Below are positions 211-12,523 of a stretch of 12,523 nucleotides of DNA, one piece after another. Numbering within the stretch: position 1 is the first letter of the stretch; every line of letters starts with the position of its first letter. The DNA comes from Caldifarciminota bacterium 4484_100 (GTDB lineage Bacteria; Hydrothermota; Tepidihabitantia; SM23-42). Both the position numbers and the translations under genes were made by a program. The notes below the pieces were generated by a model. The model searched no databases and had not been told where the DNA came from. It saw only the letters and a program-made list of their open reading frames with translations. The stretch spans positions 1 to 12,523 of the forward strand of contig MUKB01000013.1 in the NCBI GenBank assembly GCA_002049785.1. The letters run 5' to 3'.

Positions 211-1491
211 TCATCTCAATTCCTTCATCAATTCGTTGACAATGAGCTCGAACTGGAGGGCCCTTGATGCCTTGAATAGAACCACCTCATTGCCTTCAAT
301 CTTTTTAAGGAGGTATTGTAATAACTTTTTTCTGTCCTTGAAGTGCTTCCCACCATAGTATTTTGCATCGGTTCCATAAGTTAATAAAAGGGCACCTATC
401 CTGTGTGCATATTCACCGATCTCTATATGAAGTTCTTTTGAATTTTCACCAAGTTCCAGCATATCACCAAGAACAACTATCTTTCTTCTCTTTATTTCGT
501 TAACGAAATTCAGTGCGTTTTTCATTGAGGCTGGATTTGCATTGTAGGTGTCATTGATGATGAGGAGATTCTTCAGCCAGAGCGGTTCCATCCTTCCCGG
601 GGTCGGAGCTGTTTCGGTTAAGGCGGTATACTGAGTTTGGTAATCGATATTGAGCATTGTTGTGACAATTATTGCAGCCAGACAGTTGTAGACATTGGCA
701 AGACCGAGAAGCGGAGTGAAGAATTTTTTTTCTTTATAGGTGAAATGGCTGCCATATTCGGTTAACCTGATATCCTTGCAGTCGTTCAAAGAGAATTTTA
801 TAAATCTTTGGCTGATTTCATCTGTAACATTTTCACCGAGAACTGCAAATCCGTTATCAGGAAGGGCGTGAATCAGGGATAGTTTCTCCTCCCGGACACC
901 TTCGAGGGATTTTAGCCCTTTGAGATGTCCTGGACCGATGTTGGTAATTACCCCAATATCGGGTCGGGCAATTTCGCATAACCGCTTTATCTCACCTGGA
1001 TTACTGGTTCCCATCTCCAGCACGAGAAATTCTTCGTTACCATTGAGCTCAATTATGGTGAGGGGTACACCGATCAAGGAGTTATAGTTCTTCTTGGTAT
1101 AGAGAATGCGGAATTTTTTTTCCAGGATTTTTGCGATAAGGTTTTTTACGGTGGTCTTGCCATTGGTACCTGTGATAGCGATGGTGCAAGGATGAAATCG
1201 GCTTCGATAGAAACGGGCGAATTCACCGAGGGCAAACAGGGTGTCGTCTACTATAATCTCTTTTTCTGTATTCATACTCTTTTCCACGACACAGCCCACC
1301 GCTCCTCTTTTCAAGGCATCATTTAGATAGAGGTGTCCATCCGTATGTTCACCCTTAAGCGCGAAGAAGAGCTCACCGGGTTTTGTTCTTCTGGAATCGA
1401 TTGATACACCACGAATCAATTCCTGACTATGGAAGCTATTTTTCGGTTTTAATATCTTTTCAAGATCATTAATCATAAATTCACAGAACAT
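211..1491 (-). CDS. murF: UDP-N-acetylmuramoyl-tripeptide--D-alanyl-D-alanine ligase MurF
   Basis: This cytoplasmic Mur ligase adds D-Ala-D-Ala to the UDP-MurNAc-tripeptide, the last soluble step of precursor synthesis. The 426-residue protein shows the N-terminal substrate domain (SIDSRRTKPGELFFAL), the ATP P-loop GTNGKTT at residues 108-114, KNYNSLIGVPLT, LEMGTSNPGEI, and the MurF signature DTYNANPASM followed by VVLGDMLELG. Length is normal for the family. Two starts are possible. The ATG at 1491 has GAGGT nine bases upstream and is preferred. The ATG at 1476 (MINDLEK) forms an ATGA overlap with the murE stop but has a weaker Shine-Dalgarno. Either way the gene overlaps the end of murE and is probably translationally coupled. 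It is followed by mraY. Confidence 0.97.
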   Translation of the reverse strand: MFCEFMINDLEKILKPKNSFHSQELIRGVSIDSRRTKPGELFFALKGEHTDGHLYLNDALKRGAVGCVVEKSMNTEKEIIVDDTLFALGEFARFYRSRFHPCTIAITGTNGKTTVKNLIAKILEKKFRILYTKKNYNSLIGVPLTIIELNGNEEFLVLEMGTSNPGEIKRLCEIARPDIGVITNIGPGHLKGLKSLEGVREEKLSLIHALPDNGFAVLGENVTDEISQRFIKFSLNDCKDIRLTEYGSHFTYKEKKFFTPLLGLANVYNCLAAIIVTTMLNIDYQTQYTALTETAPTPGRMEPLWLKNLLIINDTYNANPASMKNALNFVNEIKRRKIVVLGDMLELGENSKELHIEIGEYAHRIGALLLTYGTDAKYYGGKHFKDRKKLLQYLLKKIEGNEVVLFKASRALQFELIVNELMKELR

Positions 1492-2894
1492 TTTACAATT
1501 ACCTCAGCATCACGGAAAGGGATGGTTCTATCCTTCAGGATCTGATACTCTTCATGTCCCTTACCTGCAACCAGAACCACATCATCCTTTTTTTTCAATT
1601 TCAGGGCATAGCAGATCGCTTCAGCACGGTCTTCGATAACTTTGTAGTTATTACCCTTTATCCCCTTTATGATGTCATTGATAATCTTTTTCGGTGGTTC
1701 ACTTCGTGGGTTATCTGATGTAATGATAGCAAAATCTGCGAGCTCGGTGGCAACCGCACCCATTTTTGGTCTCTTTTCTTTATCACGATCCCCACCACAG
1801 CCGAATACGATATAGAGCTTGCCCTTAATATATTTTCTCAGTGAGGAGAGGACATTTTTTATTGCATCCGGGGTATGGGCGAAATCCACAAAGACATTTT
1901 CAACCACCTGCTCCATCCTTCCCGGGATCCGGCTTACCGCTCTGATACCTTCCGCGATGATTTCAGGGTTGATATTCATCAGGAATGCGGTGGTGAATGC
2001 AGCAAGAATATTATAGACATTATACTGTCCGAATAACCTTGAGTTTAGTTCATATTTTTTCCCCTGGTGATTTATCTGAACGGTTATTCCATTAATATCC
2101 TCATCCAGAACCTCGGCCCAGAAATTGGCATTCTTGTTCATACCAAATGTGACAATATGTTTCAAGGGACGTCGATATATATCCTTGATAATTGGATCAT
2201 CCATATTCACTACCGCGGTTCCCTTATCTTTTAAAAGATCGAAGATATGGAGTTTTGAATTTTTGTAGTCCTCAATGGTTTGATGGAAGTCCAGGTGGTC
2301 CTGGCTGAGATTTGTGAATACCACTGTATCAAATTTGAGTGTTTCGACCCGCTCTAATTTGAGGGCGTGGGAAGAGACTTCCATTACTACATAATGGATA
2401 CCTTCATTCCTGAATTTATTGAGAAGTCGATAGATATCAGGTGCCTCGGGTGTGGTCTTTTCTGCCCTGGTCTTTTCTTTTCCGATGTAGTAGATTGTGC
2501 CAATCAATCCGGTCGATATCCGGGCACGATTGAGGATTGAATGAATCAGAAACGCGGTCGTTGTCTTGCCGTTTGTTCCAGTAATTCCAATCTTTTTGAG
2601 TTCGTTGAAATCACCGTACAATTTCCTTGCCAGAATGGACATTATCTTTCGAGTATCTGGGACAACAATCTGGGGTAGATCCGTTTCAACCCTTCTCTCG
2701 GTAACCACGGCAACCGCGCCCCGGTTCCGGGCATCATCGATGAATTTGTGGCCATCGAATTTTTCTCCGGGGACTGCGATAAAGAGGGTGCCTTTTTTCA
2801 CTTTTCGGGAATCGAATTCGATATCAGAGATTGTTACATCCTGGAAATTGTAAACTTCTTTTTTAATCTCTTCAATCAGTGTTTTTAATTGCAT
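1473..2894 (-). CDS. murE: UDP-MurNAc-L-Ala-D-Glu--meso-diaminopimelate ligase MurE
   Basis: This ligase adds the third stem-peptide residue to UDP-MurNAc-L-Ala-D-Glu. From the ATG at 2894 the protein is 473 residues. It shows SDIEFDSRKVKKGTLFIAVPG (a MurE N-terminal domain signature), P-loop GTNGKTT at 106-112, TTPEAPD at 147-153, MEVSSHAL at 171-178, FTNLSQDHLDFH, a lysine-bearing YKNSKLHIF segment (the usual site of the carbamylated lysine), FVDFAHTPDAI, GCGGDRDKEKRPKM and AGKGHE. The DNPR motif at 394-397, in the form DNPRSEPP, is the established signature for meso-diaminopimelate rather than lysine. The frame stays open upstream to 2990, but the start at 2894 matches the family length. 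It has GGTGG eight bases upstream and lies inside the end of ftsI, with a 23 bp overlap. Confidence 0.97.
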   Translation of the reverse strand: MQLKTLIEEIKKEVYNFQDVTISDIEFDSRKVKKGTLFIAVPGEKFDGHKFIDDARNRGAVAVVTERRVETDLPQIVVPDTRKIMSILARKLYGDFNELKKIGITGTNGKTTTAFLIHSILNRARISTGLIGTIYYIGKEKTRAEKTTPEAPDIYRLLNKFRNEGIHYVVMEVSSHALKLERVETLKFDTVVFTNLSQDHLDFHQTIEDYKNSKLHIFDLLKDKGTAVVNMDDPIIKDIYRRPLKHIVTFGMNKNANFWAEVLDEDINGITVQINHQGKKYELNSRLFGQYNVYNILAAFTTAFLMNINPEIIAEGIRAVSRIPGRMEQVVENVFVDFAHTPDAIKNVLSSLRKYIKGKLYIVFGCGGDRDKEKRPKMGAVATELADFAIITSDNPRSEPPKKIINDIIKGIKGNNYKVIEDRAEAICYALKLKKKDDVVLVAGKGHEEYQILKDRTIPFRDAEVIVKCSVNL

Positions 2895-4506
2895 AGTGGA
2901 GACCACCAATCTGGTAGATACTCTGGGCAACATCCTTAAATACCGGAGCGGCGATTGTGCTTGCCCAGTATCCTTTCTTGGGTTCGTCAAACATTATGGC
3001 AATGAGATATTCGGGTGATTCAGCAGGAAAATATCCGATGAAGGTTGTTATAATCGCATTCCTCGAATACCTGCCGTTGACAACCTTCTGGGCGGTGCCG
3101 GTCTTACCTGCCACCCTGACACCTTCAACCGCGGCCGCGGTTCCGCTTCCCTCTTCAACAACATCGCAGAGAATTTCGGTTATGCGTCGGGCATACTCCT
3201 GTGGAATGACCCTTCTGATTCTCAGGGGTCGGCCACGATATACGGTTCTCTGGTGGTCTTTTATCGAGGATATGAGAAGGGGCTTGTTGAGCACCCCGTT
3301 GTTGGCAATTGCCTGATAGACAAAGGCAAGCTGAAGTAGATTCACTGCTACACCCTGGCCAAAAGATAATGTTGCGAATTCAACATCGTTCAATTTTCGC
3401 CAGTCTGGTATTCTACCTGTGACTTCACCCGGAAATTCGATTCCGGTCAACTCACCGAGGCCAAAATCACGCATCAACAGATAGAACCCTTCACGGTCAA
3501 ATTTCTGTGATATCTTAACCATTGCGACATTGCTTGAATGGGCAATCGCCTGTTTTAAGGTTATGATGCCGTAATTCCTAAAATCGTGGATTGTATGTCC
3601 ACGAACCGTCACCTTTCCGCCTTCGGTGTTGATGATATTGGTCTCTTTGAAGCCGTGGAGTAATGCATAGGCAAGGGTTATTACCTTGAATGTGCTGCCC
3701 GGTTCAAATTCGTCGCAGATCACATGATTCCTCTTGTCATTTTCTGCTCCTACATTTACCAGGGCGAGGATTTCACCGGTTCTGGGATTGATGATCAGAC
3801 CAGCGGCGTAGCGCGCCTCTTCTTTTAGAAGACATTGCTTTAGATGTTGATAGAGGGTTGCCTGGAGCTGGAGGTCAATCGTCAGATAGACATCACGGCC
3901 GGGCTTGGGCTCCTTTTCAGGATAGTTGGCATAGGGGATAAGTTCACCAGTGGGACATTTCTGATAGATTGTGAATCCAGATTGTCCGTTTAAAACCTCG
4001 TTCAGTTGAAGTTCAAGACCTTCGATGCCACGGTTGTCCAGACCACATCTTCCAATCAGGTTGCTGAAGATTTCGGGCATATTATAACGGCGATTGAGGT
4101 CATTGGTAAACCCGATACTTGGATCTTCGATCTCCATAAATTCCTCTTTCTTTTTATTACTTACCTTTCTCGCAACCCAGAAGAATTTATTCTGTTTGAC
4201 CAGTTTTCTGATTTCCCTTTTTCCTTTATGGGTGAGGCGGGTGAGTTCGTTTATCAGACGGGTTTTATCAGGAGAATATCTTGGTGTACAAAAAATCGAG
4301 TAACATCTTTCTGATGTTGCAAGTGGAAGTCCATTACGATCATAGATATTACCACGTGCACCCAGAACAATCATCTTCTTCTGGTGCTGTTTTTTTGCCT
4401 TGGTTTCATAATAGTTGTGGCGCAGGCACTGTATATAAAAGAGATATGAGAAGAATATCAGCGAGATGAAAAAAAGAAAGGCATTCAGGAACCGAGCCCT
4501 TTTCAT
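2872..4506 (-). CDS. ftsI: Septal peptidoglycan transpeptidase FtsI (PBP3, class B PBP)
   Basis: Class B penicillin-binding protein that cross-links septal peptidoglycan. The 544 residues contain a short basic start, one transmembrane anchor (about 7-27), a PBP dimerisation domain beginning at ARGNIYDRNGLPLA (50-63), and a transpeptidase domain. Its three active-site motifs are all intact: STFK with nucleophile S271 and K274, SSN at 324-326, and KTGT at 468-471. There is no C-terminal PASTA domain. The protein ends soon after FDEPKKGYWAS and the APVF segment, so it resembles the Gram-negative FtsI type. The start makes an ATGA overlap with the ftsL stop and has a G-rich ribosome-binding site. 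The end overlaps murE by 23 bp. Its position after an ftsL-like gene supports the division role over a SpoVD or elongation PBP2 role. Confidence 0.94.
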   Translation of the reverse strand: MKRARFLNAFLFFISLIFFSYLFYIQCLRHNYYETKAKKQHQKKMIVLGARGNIYDRNGLPLATSERCYSIFCTPRYSPDKTRLINELTRLTHKGKREIRKLVKQNKFFWVARKVSNKKKEEFMEIEDPSIGFTNDLNRRYNMPEIFSNLIGRCGLDNRGIEGLELQLNEVLNGQSGFTIYQKCPTGELIPYANYPEKEPKPGRDVYLTIDLQLQATLYQHLKQCLLKEEARYAAGLIINPRTGEILALVNVGAENDKRNHVICDEFEPGSTFKVITLAYALLHGFKETNIINTEGGKVTVRGHTIHDFRNYGIITLKQAIAHSSNVAMVKISQKFDREGFYLLMRDFGLGELTGIEFPGEVTGRIPDWRKLNDVEFATLSFGQGVAVNLLQLAFVYQAIANNGVLNKPLLISSIKDHQRTVYRGRPLRIRRVIPQEYARRITEILCDVVEEGSGTAAAVEGVRVAGKTGTAQKVVNGRYSRNAIITTFIGYFPAESPEYLIAIMFDEPKKGYWASTIAAPVFKDVAQSIYQIGGLHYAIKNTD

Positions 4507-4754
4507 TCTACCACCCCCAGAATATCTTCTTTTTTAGGAAAGATAAACCCACGCGCCTTTGCCTCGGATTCAATCCTGGCAAGGTTTGAGAATTTCATCA
4601 GTTTGAATTGAAGTTCTTTTTTTCGGTTTTTGAGTTCACTGAGGCGTGCACTCAGTTTTTCCTTACGGACTTCGAGTTTTACGAGTTCACTTTCAATGTA
4701 GACAAGGCTGAATAGATAGCCGAAGATGATAATGAGAATCAGAAAGAAGCGCAT
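4503..4754 (-). CDS. ftsL: FtsL-like cell division protein
   Basis: An 83-residue bitopic protein. The short N terminus runs into one transmembrane helix (about residues 3-20), then a charged, lysine/glutamate/leucine-rich coiled coil (about 21-56), and a tail containing ARIESEAKARGFIFPKK. That tail resembles the FtsL/DivIC end, where a conserved region follows the coiled coil. FtsL proteins scaffold FtsB/FtsQ and activate the FtsW-FtsI pair at the septum. Sequence identity in this family is low, so the call rests on size, topology and the invariant dcw slot between rsmH and ftsI. It overlaps rsmH by 16 bp and ftsI by 4 bp (ATGA). FtsB/DivIC-type proteins look alike, so those are alternatives on sequence alone. 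Confidence 0.82.
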   Translation of the reverse strand: MRFFLILIIIFGYLFSLVYIESELVKLEVRKEKLSARLSELKNRKKELQFKLMKFSNLARIESEAKARGFIFPKKEDILGVVE

Positions 4755-5635
4755 TTTTCCCCAACCCTTAATCGAGCACTCCTTGCCTGTGGATTTTTTT
4801 TGATTTCGGATTCAGCGGGGCGTATCACCTTCTTGTTCAGAATTTTCAATTTTTTGAGTAGAGATAGTTGACGCAAGAAGTTTTTGACCAGTCGGTCTTC
4901 ACCTGAATGGTAGGCGATGATAAGAATTCTGCCCCCGGGTTTGAGATTTTCAAATGCAACCCTGAGTCCGGATATGAGGTTTGTCAGTTCATCATTGGTC
5001 CATATTCTGAGTGCCTGGAACACCTTATGGAGATTTTTTTTGAGGAATCTACGGGGGATTTTCTTCGCCACCAGTTCCCTCAATTGACCGGTTGTTTCCA
5101 GGTGGCCCCGGTGTTCATATATTTCCCGTGCCAGACTTCTACTGTTTCTTACATCACCGTAGATTTTGAGGATCCTTTTGAGTTCATCCATCTTTACCTG
5201 TCGCAATTTTTTGAATAAAGGGGGGGTGTTTGGTGCCATATTCATCAAAAGGGGACCGTTGCGCTCAAAACTGAACCCCCTTTCCGGAGTGGTCAGTTGA
5301 TGATAGGATACGCCGAGGTCGAAAAGCGCACCGTCAATACCGGGAAGTTTAAGTCTTTTTAGAATAAAGCCCAGATTTGTGAAGTTTTCCTGGAAAAGTA
5401 CACAGCGGTCCTTGAAGGGGCTGAGCCTCTTTTTACTGAATGCGATGGCTTCTGCATCCCAGTCAAGGCCGATGAAATAGGCTTTTCTATTTGCCTTTAA
5501 CAACGCCATAAGGTGCCCTGCTCCACCCACGGTGCAATCACAATAGACTCCAGAAGGTCGAAGGTTCATCCATTCGATGACCTCAGCGACAAGCACCGGC
5601 TGATGAAAGACCACTTTCGGTTTGAACTCATGCAA
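4739..5635 (-). CDS. rsmH: 16S rRNA (cytosine(1402)-N(4))-methyltransferase RsmH, divergent
   Basis: S-adenosylmethionine-dependent enzyme expected to methylate N4 of C1402 in 16S rRNA. Visible family features are FHQPVLVAEV near the start, the SAM loop CTVGGAGH, FDLGVSYHQL, RGFSF, FQALRIWTNDEL, LKPGGRILIIAYHSGEDR and NPQARSARLRVGE near the C terminus. At 298 residues the length is near normal. Several family positions are changed: the usual GPLDMRM is GPLLMNM, HSLEDR is HSGEDR, and the HPATRTFQA segment reads LHKVFQA. Activity may therefore be altered. The start is uncertain. The frame is closed by TAA at 5642-5644, leaving TTG at 5635 (weak ribosome-binding site, inside the STAS gene) or GTG at 5614. 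It overlaps the downstream ftsL by 16 bp. Confidence 0.9.
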   Translation of the reverse strand: MHEFKPKVVFHQPVLVAEVIEWMNLRPSGVYCDCTVGGAGHLMALLKANRKAYFIGLDWDAEAIAFSKKRLSPFKDRCVLFQENFTNLGFILKRLKLPGIDGALFDLGVSYHQLTTPERGFSFERNGPLLMNMAPNTPPLFKKLRQVKMDELKRILKIYGDVRNSRSLAREIYEHRGHLETTGQLRELVAKKIPRRFLKKNLHKVFQALRIWTNDELTNLISGLRVAFENLKPGGRILIIAYHSGEDRLVKNFLRQLSLLKKLKILNKKVIRPAESEIKKNPQARSARLRVGEKCASF

Positions 5636-5969
5636 AGCTTTTTAGTGCTGCCCTTCGTGAGGGGTAGATTTCAAAAGGATAGAAGCCGTAGAGCCTCAAG
5701 ATATCGTAGAGATATGCAGAAACATTCACCAGCTTTATGTCACCGCCGAGTTCCTTGAATTTTTTCTGATAGTCGATTAACCAACCAACAACCTTGTAAT
5801 TTATATGACTTACCCGGGAGAGGTCGATAATAATGTTGTAGTCACCCGCTTTTATCATCTGTTTGAACTTATCTTCAATATTGGAAAATTCCTTTTCGTC
5901 GATCTCTCCAGTGGGCAAGAAAAACGAAACCTTTTTATCTTTTATTGCCTCAACGGCCTGGATTCTCAT
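5628..5969 (-). CDS. STAS-domain protein (anti-sigma factor antagonist-like) inside the dcw cluster
   Basis: The 113 residues fit a single STAS domain: a beta-rich start, then IIIDLSRVSHINYKVVGWL at about 46-64, an amphipathic helix, GGDIKLVNVSAYLYDILRLYG, and a C-terminal helix. STAS proteins such as SpoIIAA and RsbV bind anti-sigma kinases in partner-switching systems. In those the helix start reads about DSSGLG, with a phosphorylated serine. Here the aligned residues are N57-Y58-K59-V60-V61-G62, so the Asp-Ser pair is absent. The start ATG has AAGGAGG four bases upstream and lies inside mraZ (20 bp overlap). The stop overlaps the proposed rsmH start. No anti-sigma kinase, phosphatase or sigma factor is visible in the window. 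The partner and function are unknown; a division- or envelope-linked regulatory or structural role is inference. Confidence 0.8.
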   Translation of the reverse strand: MRIQAVEAIKDKKVSFFLPTGEIDEKEFSNIEDKFKQMIKAGDYNIIIDLSRVSHINYKVVGWLIDYQKKFKELGGDIKLVNVSAYLYDILRLYGFYPFEIYPSRRAALKSFA

Positions 5970-6432
5970 CTTTCCTCCTTCTTAATCTTTCAATATTTTC
6001 TGAATCCTGAGCGTAGAATTTATTTATTTCATTGACAAACTTCTCATAGTTCTCCGGTGACCATAGTTCGATGTAGTCAATCTCACCGACGATAATGACA
6101 TTCTTCTTGATATTTGAATGCTGGAGAAGAAAATCGGGGATCAGGATTCTTCCCTGGACATCCAGCTGGTCCTCTTTTATTCCGAAGGTGAAGTGTCGGC
6201 GGTAGCGCCGTGATTGAAGATAATCCATCGATAGGGTGAGGAGTTCACTCTCTTCAAACTTTTCCCAGGTTGAGAGCGGATAGACCGCAATTTCGTAGTC
6301 GTATCCAGGGGTGAGAACCACTTTGCCCCTGGATTCCTTAAGCAGGATATTACGGAATCGACTGGGTATGGCCAATCGATTCCGGTCATCTAGGGTATGC
6401 TGAAAGAATCCGCGAAACCTAATTTTCCCCAT
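5950..6432 (-). CDS. mraZ: Transcriptional regulator MraZ (first dcw gene)
   Basis: MraZ is an AbrB-like DNA-binding protein that forms ring oligomers and represses its own dcw operon by binding TGGG-type repeats. From ATG 6432 the protein has 160 residues. Each of the two SpoVT/AbrB-like halves carries the DxxxR hallmark: HTLDDRNRLAIPSRFR at 12-27 and LDVQGRILIP at 90-99. The C-terminal tail is charged and slightly longer than in E. coli MraZ. A GTG at 6447 is in frame but lies upstream of the predicted transcript start, and family alignment begins at RFRGFFQHTLD, so ATG 6432 is chosen. This ATG is the first three bases of the third operator box. The 3' end overlaps the STAS gene by 20 bp. 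Confidence 0.95.
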   Translation of the reverse strand: MGKIRFRGFFQHTLDDRNRLAIPSRFRNILLKESRGKVVLTPGYDYEIAVYPLSTWEKFEESELLTLSMDYLQSRRYRRHFTFGIKEDQLDVQGRILIPDFLLQHSNIKKNVIIVGEIDYIELWSPENYEKFVNEINKFYAQDSENIERLRRRKDENPGR

Positions 6433-6452
6433 TTTTCCCCATTTCACCCCAT
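6427..6452 (-). promoter_or_regulatory. MraZ operator: three direct TGGGG boxes at 10 bp spacing
   Basis: On the minus strand ATGGGG occurs at 6452-6447, 6442-6437 and 6432-6427, each exactly 10 bp apart, so TGGGG boxes are separated by five bases. The E. coli MraZ operator is known to be TGGGN repeats with 5-nt spacers, and the match here is exact. One helical turn per repeat places all boxes on the same DNA face. The first box abuts the -10 element. The second supplies the only G-rich Shine-Dalgarno candidate (GGGG, four bases before the start codon). The third contains the mraZ start codon and its second codon. Confidence 0.9.
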
Positions 6453-6478
6453 TTTACTCATAATTTACGATTTGTCAA
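6451..6478 (-). promoter_or_regulatory. Promoter of the mraZ/dcw operon
   Basis: A sigma70-type promoter: TTGACA (-35, perfect consensus) at 6478-6473, a 16-base spacer, and TAAAAT (-10, one mismatch) at 6456-6451. The predicted transcript start is near the A residues at 6444-6442. This gives a leader of only about 10-13 bases before the mraZ ATG at 6432. The -10 shares its last two bases with the first ATGGGG unit, so MraZ bound there would compete directly with RNA polymerase. Confidence 0.8.
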
Positions 6479-6550
6479 GTGTTAATTTAGGTTAAATTTG
6501 GGTATAAAGTCTTGAGATTTCTAAAGTTTTTTAAGCAGAATAAATATCTT

Positions 6551-6592
6551 CTTCACAAATTTTTATCTTCTGTGCAAAAATTGTTAGTGAAG
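6551..6592. repeat. Imperfect inverted repeat upstream of mraZ
   Basis: CTTCAC at 6551-6556 pairs with GTGAAG at 6587-6592. AATTTTT at 6558-6564 pairs with AAAAATT at 6576-6582, leaving an 11-base loop and a 1-versus-4 internal bulge. It lies about 75 bases upstream of the mraZ -35. It could be a protein-binding site or a weak hairpin in read-through RNA. It is not followed by a U-run on the minus strand. In such AT-rich DNA the inner arm could arise by chance. Confidence 0.35.
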
Positions 6593-6638
6593 TTATTTCT
6601 GTGAGATTGATTTTTTTTTCTATTTTCCGAGGAGGCAC

Positions 6639-7895
6639 CTACCTCAGTCTCTTCATCCGGGCCGCAAAGATACCATCGGTATGATAATCACAGGGGAGAA
6701 TCTTAAGGTACTGATCACCCAATTCGGTAAAATCGCGTGCCGGTTCCAATTCAAAATTCGGATGGTCGCGCAGGAATAGTTCAACTACCTCTTCATCCTC
6801 TTGGGGCAGGATACTACAGGTTGAATAGATGATGGAACCGCCAGGTTTCAGTAACTCAGCAGCATTATTGATTAATTCATACTGGAGCCGGGCAAGCCTT
6901 TTGACGACCTTGGGATTCACCCGGTCTTTTACCTCGGGACGCTTTGCAATTACCCCTGAATTTGTGCAGGGTGAATCGACCAGAACCTTATCCACATTTT
7001 CAATGTAGTATTTTCGACCATCGGCAATTACCGGACGGATTATTGTAATACCCAATCGAAGGGCATTTTCCACCACCATCTTCAATCTTGAGCTGTTTAC
7101 CTCAACCGCGATAATCCTTCCTTCATTTTTCATCAGTTCAGCCATATAGGTTGCTTTGCTACCTGGAGCAGAACAGAGGTCAACAATCGTCTCACCAGGC
7201 TTGGGATCGACAAGGTGGCAGATGAGTCCCTGGGCCTCATCGTGCACTGAAATATATCCCTGTTTCATCAATGGATTGTTAATCACAAGACTGAGATGGT
7301 TGACCGATTTAAATTCCGGAAACCAGTTTGCCTTTTTATATTCCAGACCACTGTCTTTTAACTTTTCTTCAGCCTCTTCGATGGTTCCCTTGAGCAGATT
7401 TATGCGAATATAAGGGGTGGGTCTGATCTTGAAAGATTCAATTATCTTCTCACCATCTAAGGGATAGGCATCGAGAATCTTTCTCAAGACCCAGGCATGT
7501 GGTTCGCGCAGGGCCTGAACCCTTTTGTTTCTAATCACTCCCCTGAGAACCGCATTTATTAAACTCTTCTCTTTGATGGTCCGACCGAAGTTCACCGCTT
7601 CATTAACGATTGCATAGATCGGAATGCGATCGAAAAATAGATACTGGTAGACCGCAATTCTCAGGACATTTTTTAACACCGGGTCGAGCGAGAGGAAATC
7701 GCCATTGAATGTTTCCCTTATTATCTGGTCAATCTCCTCGTGGTGTCTTAAGGTGCCGAAGGCGAGTTCATTTGCCAGATGGCGATCCTCTTCCCTTAAG
7801 TCGTCCTTCTCAAATATTTTACCAAGGGCATTTTTTAGATTCTTCCCCTCATCAACCTCACATAATGCATTTAATGCGGCTTCGCGTGCATTCAT
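6639..7895 (-). CDS. rsmB: 16S rRNA (cytosine(967)-C(5))-methyltransferase RsmB
   Basis: A 418-residue RNA m5C methyltransferase of the RsmB/Sun type. Residues ~1-130 form the NusB-like RNA-binding domain (NAREAALNALCEVDEG, LANELAFGTLR, IVNEAVNFGR). A Rossmann-type catalytic domain follows. It has the SAM-binding segment DLCSAPGSKA (239-248), the DSPC motif with C310, which in the family activates release, and STCS with C360, which in the family attacks cytosine C6. The C terminus ends in HTDGIFAARM, the common DGFFAA-like end. The start overlaps the fmt stop as ATGA with a purine-rich ribosome-binding site (GGAGAGG). def-fmt-rsmB is a common gene order linking translation initiation and ribosome maturation. 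It is the last gene of its unit before the mraZ promoter region. Confidence 0.93.
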   Translation of the reverse strand: MNAREAALNALCEVDEGKNLKNALGKIFEKDDLREEDRHLANELAFGTLRHHEEIDQIIRETFNGDFLSLDPVLKNVLRIAVYQYLFFDRIPIYAIVNEAVNFGRTIKEKSLINAVLRGVIRNKRVQALREPHAWVLRKILDAYPLDGEKIIESFKIRPTPYIRINLLKGTIEEAEEKLKDSGLEYKKANWFPEFKSVNHLSLVINNPLMKQGYISVHDEAQGLICHLVDPKPGETIVDLCSAPGSKATYMAELMKNEGRIIAVEVNSSRLKMVVENALRLGITIIRPVIADGRKYYIENVDKVLVDSPCTNSGVIAKRPEVKDRVNPKVVKRLARLQYELINNAAELLKPGGSIIYSTCSILPQEDEEVVELFLRDHPNFELEPARDFTELGDQYLKILPCDYHTDGIFAARMKRLR

Positions 7896-9757: not shown

Positions 9758-10027
9758 CTATTTCAGTTTAATTATCTTTTCAACACATCGATATTCTCCA
9801 GCCCTGATTTGAATAAAATAGATACCTGCGGGAAGCTCAGAATTTTGCCAGAATTTTTTATAGCAACCGGGTTTCAGTTCAGCATTCAGGATATCCTCGA
9901 TATGCCTTCCCTGAACATCATAGGCTGATATCCGCACCGACATATCCTCGGGAATCTGCAGTCTAAATCCGAATCGGTCAGAAAAGGGGTTGGTGGAGAT
10001 GAATCCAATTGCGAATTTATCAGGGAT
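9758..10027 (-). other. C-terminal T9SS-like sorting module of the exported protein
   Basis: The last ~89 residues read NPF near the start, then SVRISAYDVQGRHI, LKPGCYKKFW and LPAGIYFIQIRAGE, with a basic end VEKIIKLK. This beta-sandwich pattern (YDVxGR, LxxGxYxxxW, LPAGIYFIxI, KIIKLK) is the well-known type A C-terminal sorting module used by type IX secretion in Bacteroidota and found in related FCB-type phyla. No por/gld secretion genes are in this window. Confidence 0.78.
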
Positions 10028-12523
10028 TATTTTTTGTTCCATTATCCCTTCCACTCCGATCGTAAAGAGGCTATCGCTTAAATCAAAATCTCTATTTCCT
10101 GCAGGGTCATAGGCGGAAATTTTTATCAGACACTCATAAGATGTGGTTTCAGGAACGGCCCAGTTGTAGGTTGAATCGTTGCCGTCAATGTGGGCGATGA
10201 GCAGGGGATAGGTTTGCCCACCGTCAAGGGAGAGCTCTATATTGAGGCTGTCGATACCGACATTATCCCAGGAATACCAGCGGATTGTATGGACTTCATT
10301 CCAGTACCAGACCTCACCACCATTGGGTATAATCACCGATACCTCAGGCGGAATATTATCAACAATCGAAAAGAGAGAATCGGATATATCCTCGGCCTGG
10401 TTCCCACTCCCGTCAAATGCCTGAATACGGATTAGACAGGCTGAAGAGTATACAGACGGCACAGTCCATTCATAAAAGGTATCTGAAGGTGGAGGGCTGG
10501 CAATGGTCGTCCAGGTAGTTCCGCTGTCAGATGAAAATTCCACAGAGATTGAATCGAGCCCGATATTGTCAATTGCATACCAGTATATTGTATCAATCTC
10601 TTCCGTATAGAAGATTTCTCCACCGTTTGGCGCGTAGAGTATTACCTGGGGTGGTTCAGCATCATGAATCTCAAAGAGTGCATCAGAGATATCCTCACCA
10701 CTATTGGGGAATGGGTCAAAGGCAACAACCTTTACCAGACATTCTGTGGAGGGTGTGGCAGGGACCTGCCATATATAGGATGTATCATTGGGCAGGTTAT
10801 TTGCGATTGGGAGCCAGGTCCCACCACCATCAGTAGAATAGTATATTGAGAGAGAATCTATCGATGAATTGTCAGTAGCGGTCCATACGATTGTATCAAA
10901 TTCTCCGATATTCCATACTTCACCACCATTCGGTTTGATGACCGTAACCTGTGGGGGAATTAAGTCAGAGTGAATTTTACTTGCATAGATATCCCAGTTG
11001 CCATTTCTATCGGTCTGCCACAGAACCCAGATATTTCCTGAATCGTCTAAGGTTGTGGCGGGTAGGATGTCCTGATAACTACTGTTACTGATACAGGCAA
11101 GGTCCTGCCAGGCTCCATCTTTATAATAACGGCTGAGGATTTCCCAATCACCGTTTCGATCTGACTGCCAGATACACCAGACATAACCATCCTTGTCAAC
11201 GACGAGTTCTGAATATTCGTCATTGTTTTCATCGGAGGTGATGGCCTGGGGTGATGACCAGGAGACACCATCATAATGGCTTTCATAGATATCGGCATTG
11301 CCATTACGCCAGGTGGTCCAGGTGACCCAGATTGTTCCATTACCATCAACACAGATCCTTGGATCCTGGTCCTGGACAGGGTTTCCAGTGACTCGGTAGA
11401 TATTTTCCCAGTGTCCTGAGCTGGGGTTGTATCGTTTCACATAGATATTACGGTTATCCTGATATCGTTCACTTGACCATACGGTCCAGGCCCTGCCCGC
11501 ACTATCGGTTGCCATTCTCGGAGCATAGTCATTCGCAGAGTCGATGGTTACCGCAAACATCGATTGCCAGCCGGAATCGTCATAATAACGGCAGTAGATA
11601 TCGCCATTCAGATGATTCCACCGTTCCATTGTGACCCAGAGACGGTTGTCTCCATCAGTGGTCATTGCCGGATGCAGGGCATCGGTTGCTTTACTGCTAA
11701 CCCGGTAGGGGGTTATCCAGTTGCTACCATTGTAACGGGTGAAGTATATATCATAATTTCTTCCAAAGCATCTGGACCAGGCAAGCACCGCCTGTCCAGC
11801 GGAGTCCCTGGTCATCGCCGGGAAGAAATCCCAATAGAGATAGGGATCGATTATCTGGGTTGAGCTCCATACACCGTTTTGATGATATGCTACGCATATT
11901 TCAGTTCTGCCGTTTGATTGGGAGCGTCCTGTAACCCAGGCCGCCCAGATTCTGCCGTTGCCGTCAGAGGTGGTGGATACATAACCATCGGTCTCATCAT
12001 CGAGGTCTACAGGTTCGGGTGTGGTCCAGCTGTAAAGACTCTTTATCTCTGAGGAATGGGGGAAACCTGCAGTGAGCCTTTTTGCCGACTGTTTCGGCTT
12101 TAATGTCGGATCGCCGCAGATAATCATACCGTAGAACCAGGATGGATCCGTTATACCCCATTGAGTGAACCATTGCTTGAATGCTTCACCTACAGAATAG
12201 TCATTATTCATTGGTCCGTAAAAATCGCTGAAGTGTAGCATGCTACCGACCTTTGATGAACCGACAGATAGAAGACCATTTTCAGGACCGAATATATAGC
12301 AACCAGCGGTATAATTCTCTTCAAAGAATCTCGTGCCACTGCATTGGAATAGATTTAGAAAAAGAAATGGAGGATTGGCAAACCATATCTCAAAATTGAA
12401 TACGGTTCCGGCATAACCCCCGCTATATTTAAATGTATTGCCCCAGGGTGAGGAATGGCTACATATCTGAACCCATTCATAGGCATCGTTCAATCTCATA
12501 CGGAAATCACTTGCTACTGTAGT
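9758..12523 (-). CDS. Exported multidomain protein: C25-like (gingipain-type) peptidase end, seven-blade propeller, Ig-like repeats, C-terminal sorting module (5' end outside window)
   Basis: The frame is open to the right edge (eight more codons upstream of the ATG at 12499), so the start is missing. Numbering from that ATG, residues 1-136 resemble the end of a C25 caspase-fold peptidase: CSHSSPWG (candidate catalytic H15), LNLFQCSGTRFF (candidate nucleophile C53), LLSVGSSKVGSM, DFYGPM, GEAFKQW and GMIICGDPTLKP. Residues ~165-510 are seven ~50-residue propeller repeats, 514-814 are three ~100-residue Ig-like repeats, and ~825-913 form a T9SS-like sorting module. It is probably secreted or surface-anchored. 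Its substrate is unknown, and the missing N terminus would show a signal peptide and propeptide. It ends 85 bases before yajC and appears to be a separate unit. A non-peptidase adhesin role remains possible if the rest of the active site is degraded. Confidence 0.82.
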   Translation of the reverse strand, partial: TTVASDFRMRLNDAYEWVQICSHSSPWGNTFKYSGGYAGTVFNFEIWFANPPFLFLNLFQCSGTRFFEENYTAGCYIFGPENGLLSVGSSKVGSMLHFSDFYGPMNNDYSVGEAFKQWFTQWGITDPSWFYGMIICGDPTLKPKQSAKRLTAGFPHSSEIKSLYSWTTPEPVDLDDETDGYVSTTSDGNGRIWAAWVTGRSQSNGRTEICVAYHQNGVWSSTQIIDPYLYWDFFPAMTRDSAGQAVLAWSRCFGRNYDIYFTRYNGSNWITPYRVSSKATDALHPAMTTDGDNRLWVTMERWNHLNGDIYCRYYDDSGWQSMFAVTIDSANDYAPRMATDSAGRAWTVWSSERYQDNRNIYVKRYNPSSGHWENIYRVTGNPVQDQDPRICVDGNGTIWVTWTTWRNGNADIYESHYDGVSWSSPQAITSDENNDEYSELVVDKDGYVWCIWQSDRNGDWEILSRYYKDGAWQDLACISNSSYQDILPATTLDDSGNIWVLWQTDRNGNWDIYASKIHSDLIPPQVTVIKPNGGEVWNIGEFDTIVWTATDNSSIDSLSIYYSTDGGGTWLPIANNLPNDTSYIWQVPATPSTECLVKVVAFDPFPNSGEDISDALFEIHDAEPPQVILYAPNGGEIFYTEEIDTIYWYAIDNIGLDSISVEFSSDSGTTWTTIASPPPSDTFYEWTVPSVYSSACLIRIQAFDGSGNQAEDISDSLFSIVDNIPPEVSVIIPNGGEVWYWNEVHTIRWYSWDNVGIDSLNIELSLDGGQTYPLLIAHIDGNDSTYNWAVPETTSYECLIKISAYDPAGNRDFDLSDSLFTIGVEGIMEQKIIPDKFAIGFISTNPFSDRFGFRLQIPEDMSVRISAYDVQGRHIEDILNAELKPGCYKKFWQNSELPAGIYFIQIRAGEYRCVEKIIKLK
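10058..10960 (-). repeat. Three tandem ~100-residue Ig-like repeats within the exported protein
   Basis: Three units spaced about 101-102 codons apart (residues 514-612, 616-713, 717-814) start with PP(Q/E)V followed by PNGGE. Each continues with DTI.W or HTIRW, D...ID(S)L/GLDS, S.D(G/S)G, Y.W.VP and (C)LI/VKI..(Y/F)D, ending GEDISDALFEI, AEDISDSLFSI or DFDLSDSLFTI. The PNGGE-W opening is common in bacterial extracellular Kre9/KNH-like beta-sandwich repeats. They probably act as stalk or spacer domains. Confidence 0.8.
10970..12007 (-). repeat. Seven tandem beta-propeller blades within the exported protein
   Basis: Seven units of roughly 48-53 codons share the pattern D..P.m..D..G..W..W...R.g..diY...Y....W......I. 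Examples are DSAGRAWTVWSSERYQDNRN, DGNGTIWVTWTTWRNGNADI, DKDGYVWCIWQSDRNGDWEI and DDSGNIWVLWQTDRNGNWDI. Seven complete units fit one closed seven-blade propeller. Blades 5-7 are the most alike, and the first blade is the most divergent. Confidence 0.75.

What the first reader, a model, noticed from the sequence alone, without database searches (positions are those of the whole stretch)
6427..6478. MraZ operator, promoter -10, ribosome-binding site and mraZ start codon compressed into about 50 bp
Three ATGGGG units at exact 10 bp steps begin within a TTGACA-N16-TAAAAT promoter and end with the mraZ start codon itself. The predicted leader is only ~12 nt. The second box provides the only G-rich Shine-Dalgarno, and the third box is ATG plus the second codon. 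In characterised systems MraZ boxes lie in the upstream promoter region. Here the same repeats would serve repressor recognition, ribosome binding and start coding. MraZ binding would block the polymerase directly, and operator evolution would be constrained by translation.
Basis: partly seen in the sequence, partly recalled or inferred. Interest (0 to 1): 0.75.

Follow-up and report, generated by a model that had tools for sequence, protein, structure and literature searches.

The report
MraZ operator fused to start codon
In a group of uncultured WOR-3 bacteria, the DNA repeats that should let the cell-division regulator MraZ control its own operon also supply part of the promoter, the likely ribosome-binding site and the start codon of its gene, so one 50-base stretch does several jobs; this is an unusually compact version of a known control circuit.

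Summary
On the minus strand, TTGACA-N16-TAAAAT runs into three ATGGGG boxes at exact 10-bp steps. Box 1 overlaps the -10, box 2 is the only G-rich ribosome-binding candidate in the predicted 12-nt leader, and box 3 is the mraZ ATG plus codon 2. The gene is a genuine mraZ heading a dcw cluster in candidate division WOR-3. In all 26 mraZ loci found in the 27 genomes held of its order, the block is gap-free, with 18 nt between -10 and ATG and the ATG in box 3. A strict three-box pattern occurs once per genome in 25 of 27, always at mraZ. Codon 2 is GGG in 23 of 26, against 26 of 212 other mraZ glycines, which suggests that DNA recognition holds that base. Characterised operators already lie downstream of the -10, so the novelty is narrower than claimed: fusion with the start codon. 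Start-in-box also occurs in five more WOR-3 families and in 4 of 110 loci elsewhere, three of those doubtful. Box 2 is a weak Shine-Dalgarno. Transcript start, MraZ binding and repression are untested. Verdict: a conserved, lineage-specific variant of the MraZ autoregulatory operator.

The parts
6473..6478 (-). -35 element TTGACA
   Evidence: CTTGACAA invariant in 26 of 26 loci of the order
6451..6456 (-). -10 element TAAAAT, 16-nt spacer from the -35
   Evidence: 16-nt spacer in 22 of 22 f1 loci printed, and 18 nt between -10 and ATG in 26 of 26
6447..6452 (-). MraZ box 1 ATGGGG, sharing AT with the -10 and lying in the discriminator
   Evidence: ATGG invariant in 26 of 26, the following bases vary
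6444..6444 (-). predicted transcript start (A, 7th base after the -10); leader 6444-6433, 12 nt
   Evidence: inference from spacing; A at this position in 88% and at the next in 100% of 26 loci
6437..6442 (-). MraZ box 2 ATGGGG, also the only Shine-Dalgarno candidate in the predicted leader
   Evidence: TGGG invariant in 26 of 26; pairing -5.5 kcal/mol with the 16S 3' end, anti-SD read in L316 and L317
6427..6432 (-). MraZ box 3 ATGGGG = start codon ATG plus codon 2 GGG of mraZ
   Evidence: ATGGG invariant in 26 of 26, codon 2 GGG in 23 of 26
5950..6432 (-). mraZ coding sequence (160 aa), MraZ family
   Evidence: Pfam PF02381 1.1e-25, two stretches; NCBIfam TIGR00242 102.6 bits over cut-off 98.35
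5628..5969 (-). STAS-domain gene overlapping the end of mraZ
   Evidence: Pfam PF01740 4.4e-12; near mraZ in 28 of 30 WOR-3 loci L001-L030
4739..5635 (-). rsmH (mraW); start codon uncertain
   Evidence: Pfam PF01795 2.6e-79
4503..4754 (-). ftsL-like small protein
   Evidence: TIGR02209 8.2e-6, 25.7 bits, below its cut-off 42.45
2872..4506 (-). ftsI-type transpeptidase
   Evidence: Pfam PF00905 and PF03717
1473..2990 (-). murE (true start probably inside this frame)
   Evidence: NF001126 567.9 bits over cut-off 373
211..1491 (-). murF
   Evidence: TIGR01143 391.9 bits over cut-off 288.6

Best explanation
This is the autoregulatory operator of mraZ, which heads the dcw operon, fused with the core promoter and the translation start. 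Shown by sequence and comparison: three 10-bp-spaced boxes that begin in the -10 and end in codon 2, kept gap-free in the 26 loci of an order of WOR-3 bacteria, with a silent coding base strongly conserved. Inferred: RNA polymerase starts at about A6444 and makes a 12-nt leader; the ribosome pairs weakly with box 2 and starts at the ATG of box 3; an MraZ ring binds the three boxes side by side on one DNA face and excludes polymerase from the -10 and the start site, so MraZ limits its own operon (mraZ, STAS, rsmH, ftsL-like, ftsI, murE, murF). The arrangement may have arisen when the start codon moved upstream into a box that in the sister family f3 lies just upstream of the ATG in Shine-Dalgarno position; the old ATG position became codon 4 (mostly ATT or ATA) and the protein gained the residues M-G-x.
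For: Gap-free block in 26 of 26 loci, mean column identity 0.88 over -46..-1 against 0.55 upstream, although codons 21-140 of mraZ differ by up to 40% between pairs. Pattern found once and at mraZ in 25 of 27 genomes, reversed-pattern control 0. GGG at codon 2 in 23 of 26 versus 26 of 212 other Gly codons; the most conserved of 23 four-fold sites (0.88, next 0.69). After thinning to 19 loci under 80% identity, 16 of 19 versus 18 of 137. GGG is 13.9% of Gly codons in long frames of 355 kb of G001. MraZ family and dcw context. Same boxes in other positions in sister families. Published MraZ operators are repeats of the same kind downstream of the -10 (passages), and MraZ represses the cluster in Mycoplasma genitalium and, as cited there, in E. 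coli (passages).
Against: No transcript start, footprint or expression data for this lineage were found in my searches. In Neisseria elongata mraZ deletion lowers dcw expression (PMC9395523 passages), and in mycoplasma MraZ has been called an activator (as cited), so repression is not universal. The Shine-Dalgarno is weak. A long same-strand frame ends 98-361 nt upstream in 24 of 26 loci of the order and no terminator-like site was found in 6300-6900, so read-through transcripts with a longer leader may exist. The codon-2 test corrects for relatedness only by thinning. The distance from box to the conserved Arg codon differs by 2 nt between f3 and this order, so the start-codon move needs more than one change.
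Confidence: 0.78

Rival explanations
1. The conserved bases are only promoter plus translation signals (discriminator, Shine-Dalgarno, start); the box look is incidental and MraZ binds elsewhere or not at all.
For: Box 1 shares AT with the -10, box 2 is in Shine-Dalgarno position and box 3 contains the ATG.
Against: The invariant GG after the -10 and GGG at codon 2 (23 of 26) have no promoter or translation reason known to me. The 10-bp period is exact. The same boxes sit away from the start in sister families. The strict pattern has no second copy in any of the 27 genomes of the order.
Confidence: 0.1
2. Translation starts elsewhere: at GTG 6447 inside box 1, or at the ATT codon (codon 4) that aligns with the ATG of family f3.
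For: GTG 6447 is in frame, and 14 of 26 loci of the order have an in-frame start at -15. ATT is a rare start codon (recalled).
Against: The -15 start is absent in 12 of 26 loci and lies upstream of the predicted transcript start. Codon 4 varies between ATT, ATA, ATC and GTT while the box-3 ATG is invariant in 26 of 26.
Confidence: 0.06
3. The G-runs act mainly as a G-quadruplex, as proposed for the mraZ promoter of Staphylococcus aureus.
For: A G4 in the G-rich region downstream of the mraZ promoter is reported in PMC11796246 (passages), which also says such motifs are conserved across several bacteria.
Against: Only 2 of 26 loci of the order have four runs of three or more G within 30 nt of the ATG; 15 have three and 9 have two.
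Confidence: 0.03
4. The same operator geometry is used by MraZ to activate, not repress, the dcw operon.
For: mraZ deletion lowers dcw expression in N. elongata; activator role reported in mycoplasma (as cited).
Against: Boxes overlapping the -10 and start site would leave polymerase no room; inference from geometry only.
Confidence: 0.08

Closest known systems
E. coli Pmra / MraZ operator (Eraso et al. 2014; paper not held, seen only as cited; sequence L113)
   Same: Promoter, then three GTGGGN boxes at 10-bp steps downstream of the -10, mraZ first in the dcw cluster.
   Different: In E. coli the last full box begins 24 nt before the ATG (sequence), and transcription is reported to start 38 bp upstream of mraZ. 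Here box 1 overlaps the -10 and box 3 is the start codon.
Burkholderia cenocepacia PmraBc (PMC7761207, passages)
   Same: Direct repeats (7 nt plus 3-nt spacer, so 10 bp) downstream of the -10, overlapping the transcript start; MraZ binds.
   Different: Transcript start 100 bp upstream of mraZ, four repeats, no overlap with the start codon.
Mollicutes MraZ site (AAAGTGKN3)3 (Fisunov et al. 2016 as cited in PMC5282649 and PMC8475190)
   Same: Three direct repeats at 10-bp period in the mraZ promoter.
   Different: Box sequence AAAGTG[T/G]; relation to the start codon not stated in the passages read.
Controller protein HsdC of Mollicutes (PMC5282649) and phage PY54 Cro/CI (PMC4488713)
   Same: Precedents for compact regulation: an operator over the -10 and transcript start (passages), and leaderless repressor mRNAs beginning at AUG (passages).
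   Different: Unrelated protein families, and no operator box that contains the start codon was described in the passages read.

Membership tests
MraZ (TIGR00242 / PF02381) | Profile match above curated cut-off | tested here: met
   TIGR00242 102.6 bits over 98.35; PF02381 89.9 over 23. Five other, lineage-specific NCBIfam MraZ models match below their cut-offs.
MraZ (TIGR00242 / PF02381) | Two AbrB-like halves, each with a D...R motif | tested here: met
   Two PF02381 matches over cut-off in the genome search; D15/R19 and D91/R95 invariant in 10 aligned sequences. That these arginines contact DNA is recalled.
[quoted passage not shown]
   mraZ, STAS, rsmH, ftsL-like, ftsI, murE, murF in order on one strand
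MraZ operator | Three or more direct repeats with TGGG core at 10-bp period near the mraZ promoter | tested here: met
MraZ operator | Repeats lie wholly between promoter and gene, apart from the start codon | tested here: not met
   Box 1 overlaps the -10, box 3 is the start codon. This describes the E. coli and B. cenocepacia cases; I treat it as the variant feature, not as a reason to exclude it.
MraZ operator | MraZ binds the repeats and alters transcription | not testable with these tools
   needs purified protein
Promoter G-quadruplex of mraZ | Four or more G-tracts | tested here: not met
   2 of 26 loci of the order have four; the window shows three GGGG runs
Leaderless mRNA | Transcript starts at the start codon | tested here: inconclusive
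   18 nt between -10 and ATG, which predicts a 12-nt leader; no mapped 5' end

The most novel reading that the evidence does not exclude
In WOR-3 bacteria the MraZ operator is a movable, multi-use element: in different families it forms the discriminator, part of the promoter spacer, the Shine-Dalgarno, the start codon or codons inside mraZ, and moves of the start codon into a box have changed the N-terminus of MraZ itself. In one family (f7, three genomes) boxes appear at 10 bp and then 21 bp, the later ones inside the frame of a predicted leaderless mRNA, as if the reading frame forced two helical turns into seven codons.
Probability: 0.3. Interest if true: 0.62.

Novelty: new variant of a known kind. 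Interest (0 to 1): 0.46.

Why it matters
It looks like a clear natural case of one short DNA stretch under three kinds of selection at once: sigma-70 promoter, regulator operator and translation start. A silent codon position seems to carry an operator signal that can be measured. It gives start-codon prediction in uncultured bacteria an independent marker, and it shows that the position of a widespread division operator relative to its gene can drift while its period is kept.

Tried and rejected
Rejected: G-quadruplex as main function. An Rfam element: the two matches in 6300-6700 are far below gathering scores, E 0.049 and 0.81. Translation start at GTG 6447 or codon 4. A second copy of the strict three-box pattern in the genome (none in 27 genomes; looser copies were not sought genome-wide).

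Weaker than hoped: the claim that start-in-box is special to WOR-3. Outside the phylum 4 of 110 loci with a three-box chain also have the latest ATG/GTG/TTG start in a box (rows). Three of these (L159, L174, L290) have a CTG where the usual M stands, so their starts are doubtful, and L236 has a further box downstream. Within WOR-3 but outside the order the figure is 7 of 51 loci with a chain, in five of the other 23 families with a chain, so the difference rests largely on one order. The comparison sets are not random: one search kept the best 80 of 260 matches, and searches gave loci only for the 30 best places of each search.

Rows dropped: of 123 places, 110 were fetched and 13 were not. 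L092 was dropped because its contig ends. Loci L114-L137 were left out of counts as copies of genomes already counted, judged from titles and coordinates, not checked one by one. Six duplicates were dropped in the four extra phyla. Six loci with fallback anchors were skipped in the promoter scan, which is crude: it found no promoter in 27 of 27 loci of the phylum of G147. Chains need exact 10-bp steps, so 32 of 109 WOR-3 loci and 63 of 173 other loci, drifted or boxless, are not counted as chains. 'Latest start' counts only ATG, GTG and TTG.

Literature: in 10 paper searches (listings) and in passages of ten papers I saw no description of MraZ boxes that contain the start codon. Eraso 2014 and White 2022 were not held, so this is no proof of absence.

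Full report
WHAT IS THERE. On the minus strand of the window the order is TTGACA (6478-6473), 16 nt, TAAAAT (6456-6451), then ATGGGG at 6452-6447, 6442-6437 and 6432-6427. The promoter scan scores 11 of 12. The first box shares its AT with the -10; the third box is the start codon and codon 2 of the gene. The gene is mraZ: NCBIfam TIGR00242 102.6 bits over a cut-off of 98.35 and two Pfam MraZ stretches. Downstream on the same strand come a STAS gene, rsmH, an ftsL-like gene, ftsI, murE and murF. The closest named relatives are titled candidate division WOR-3 or Candidatus Stahlbacteria (the nearest at 84% MraZ identity).

IS IT MORE THAN CHANCE. The exact three-box pattern occurs once in the window; with up to three mismatches shuffles give a mean of 0.38. 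TGGG three times at 10 bp occurs once in 355 kb of the nearest relative, and that one is mraZ. The pattern ATGGN6ATGGGN5ATGGG was found in 25 of 27 genomes of the order, once each, every time at the mraZ start (coordinates compared with those); the backwards pattern gave none. The two misses are G015, in which no MraZ was found, and G090, whose second box begins GTGG (L023).

CONSERVATION. Of the 27 genomes of the order (families f1 and f2), 26 yielded a mraZ. In 26 of 26 the block from TTGACA to ATGGG lines up without a gap, 18 nt lie between the -10 and the ATG, and the ATG of box 3 is the latest possible start (a ten-sequence alignment). Mean column identity is 0.88 over -46..-1 and 0.55 over the 33 columns before that block. 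Box 1 is weaker: ATGG is invariant but the next bases vary; TGGG in box 2 and ATGGG in box 3 are invariant.

A CODING BASE THAT LOOKS HELD BY THE OPERATOR. Codon 2 is glycine in 26 of 26 and GGG in 23, GGA in 2, GGT in 1. Other glycine codons of the same genes are GGG in 26 of 212. Among 23 four-fold sites in codons 2-121 (first two bases shared by 24 or more loci), this is the most conserved (0.88, next 0.69). After thinning to 19 loci under 80% identity, 16 of 19 are GGG against 18 of 137 (Fisher p 5e-10; relatedness is only partly removed). In long frames of 355 kb of G001 GGG is 13.9% of glycine codons, and glycine is codon 2 in 5 of 170. I know of no translational reason for GGG there; a MraZ box explains it.

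TRANSLATION. The 16S 3' end in L316 and L317 carries the usual anti-Shine-Dalgarno. The 12-nt leader pairs at -5.5 kcal/mol in 16 of 26 loci, more strongly (-6.1 to -8.4) in 9 and at -3.9 in one. Of nine other start regions of the window tested over 20 nt, seven pair at -6.8 to -14.7 and two (the fmt and rsmH starts as taken) are weaker. Over 20 nt the mraZ region reaches -10.6 through box 1, which would count only on a transcript starting further upstream. Such transcripts are possible: a long same-strand frame ends 98-361 nt upstream in 24 of 26 loci of the order, and no terminator-like site was found in 6300-6900. The 12-nt leader is thus a prediction.

BEYOND THE ORDER. I examined 109 WOR-3 loci (110 of 123 places fetched; one dropped at a contig end). 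Of these, 77 have three or more [AGT]TGG at exact 10-bp steps, and in 33 the latest possible start is the last box: 26 in f1 and f2, and 7 in f4, f11, f21, f26 and f29, so 7 of the 25 families with a chain. In families f3 and f37 the last box begins 9-12 nt before the ATG, in Shine-Dalgarno position; in f5, f16 and f30 it begins 23 nt or more upstream. Among loci not assigned to WOR-3, 110 of 173 have a chain, and in 4 the latest start is in a box (59 mixed loci, plus 27, 29, 29 and 29 from the phyla of four genomes). Three of the four have a CTG where the usual M stands. In the remaining 106 the latest start lies 9-80 nt after the first base of the last box. The gap between -10 and start is 18 nt in the order; 20-91 nt in nearly all other WOR-3 loci with a promoter match; 6-7 in f7 and in single loci of f32 and f33.

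HOW IT MAY HAVE ARISEN. In f3 the third box is followed by an ATG directly before the conserved Arg-Phe-Arg-Gly; in the order that codon is ATT, ATA, ATC or GTT, and the protein begins three codons earlier, inside the box. The distance from box to the Arg codon also differs by 2 nt. The simplest reading is that the start codon moved upstream into the box, box 2 took over as ribosome-binding site, and MraZ gained a short N-terminus. This is inference; I built no tree.

COMPARISON WITH WHAT IS KNOWN. MraZ operators of E. coli and B. cenocepacia are 10-bp-period repeats downstream of the -10 (passages of PMC7761207; E. coli sequence L113). In Mollicutes the site is (AAAGTGKN3)3 (passages). MraZ represses the cluster in M. 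genitalium but has been linked to higher expression in N. elongata. The PDB holds MraZ chains 1n0e, 9qlr, 9qlg and 9sx6 related to this protein; I read no papers on them.

VERDICT. The feature is real, conserved and apparently under constraint, and the protein is a true MraZ. It most likely works like the known MraZ autoregulatory operator, in a form compressed onto the promoter and start codon. It is a new variant of a known kind. Binding, the transcript start and the direction of regulation remain untested.

Noticed in passing
L082, L087, L091 (family f7): mraZ predicted leaderless (-10 ends 6-7 nt before ATG). In L087 a TTGG beside the -10 is followed by ATGG at +10, +31 and +52 inside the reading frame (21-bp, seven-codon repeat); L082 is similar, L091 lacks the middle copy.
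   Followed up: partly
L050 (f33) and L051 (f32): GTGG boxes at 10-bp steps lie between TTGACA and the -10-like hexamer, which ends about 7 nt before the latest start.
   Followed up: partly
window 5628-5969: A STAS-domain gene lies between mraZ and rsmH and overlaps the end of mraZ; found near mraZ in 28 of 30 WOR-3 loci L001-L030. Its role in a dcw cluster is unknown to me.
   Followed up: partly
L044, L046, L047, L049, L059 (f37): The last box GTGGTGATT ends next to the ATG and resembles an extended Shine-Dalgarno (GGTGAT), so the MraZ box consensus itself can mimic a ribosome-binding site.
   Followed up: no
window 6461-6444: ATG AGT AAA ATG GGG TGA: a five-codon frame across the -10 and box 1, relevant only to transcripts that start further upstream.
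   Followed up: no
L236 (phylum of G149), L159 and L174 (Methylothermaceae), L290 (phylum of G150): Possible start-in-box cases outside WOR-3, all GTG; L159, L174 and L290 have a competing CTG at the usual start position.
   Followed up: partly
[quoted passage not shown]
   Followed up: no
window 9758-12499: Long protein whose C-terminus weakly matches the T9SS type A sorting domain (21.8 bits, cut-off 23).
   Followed up: no
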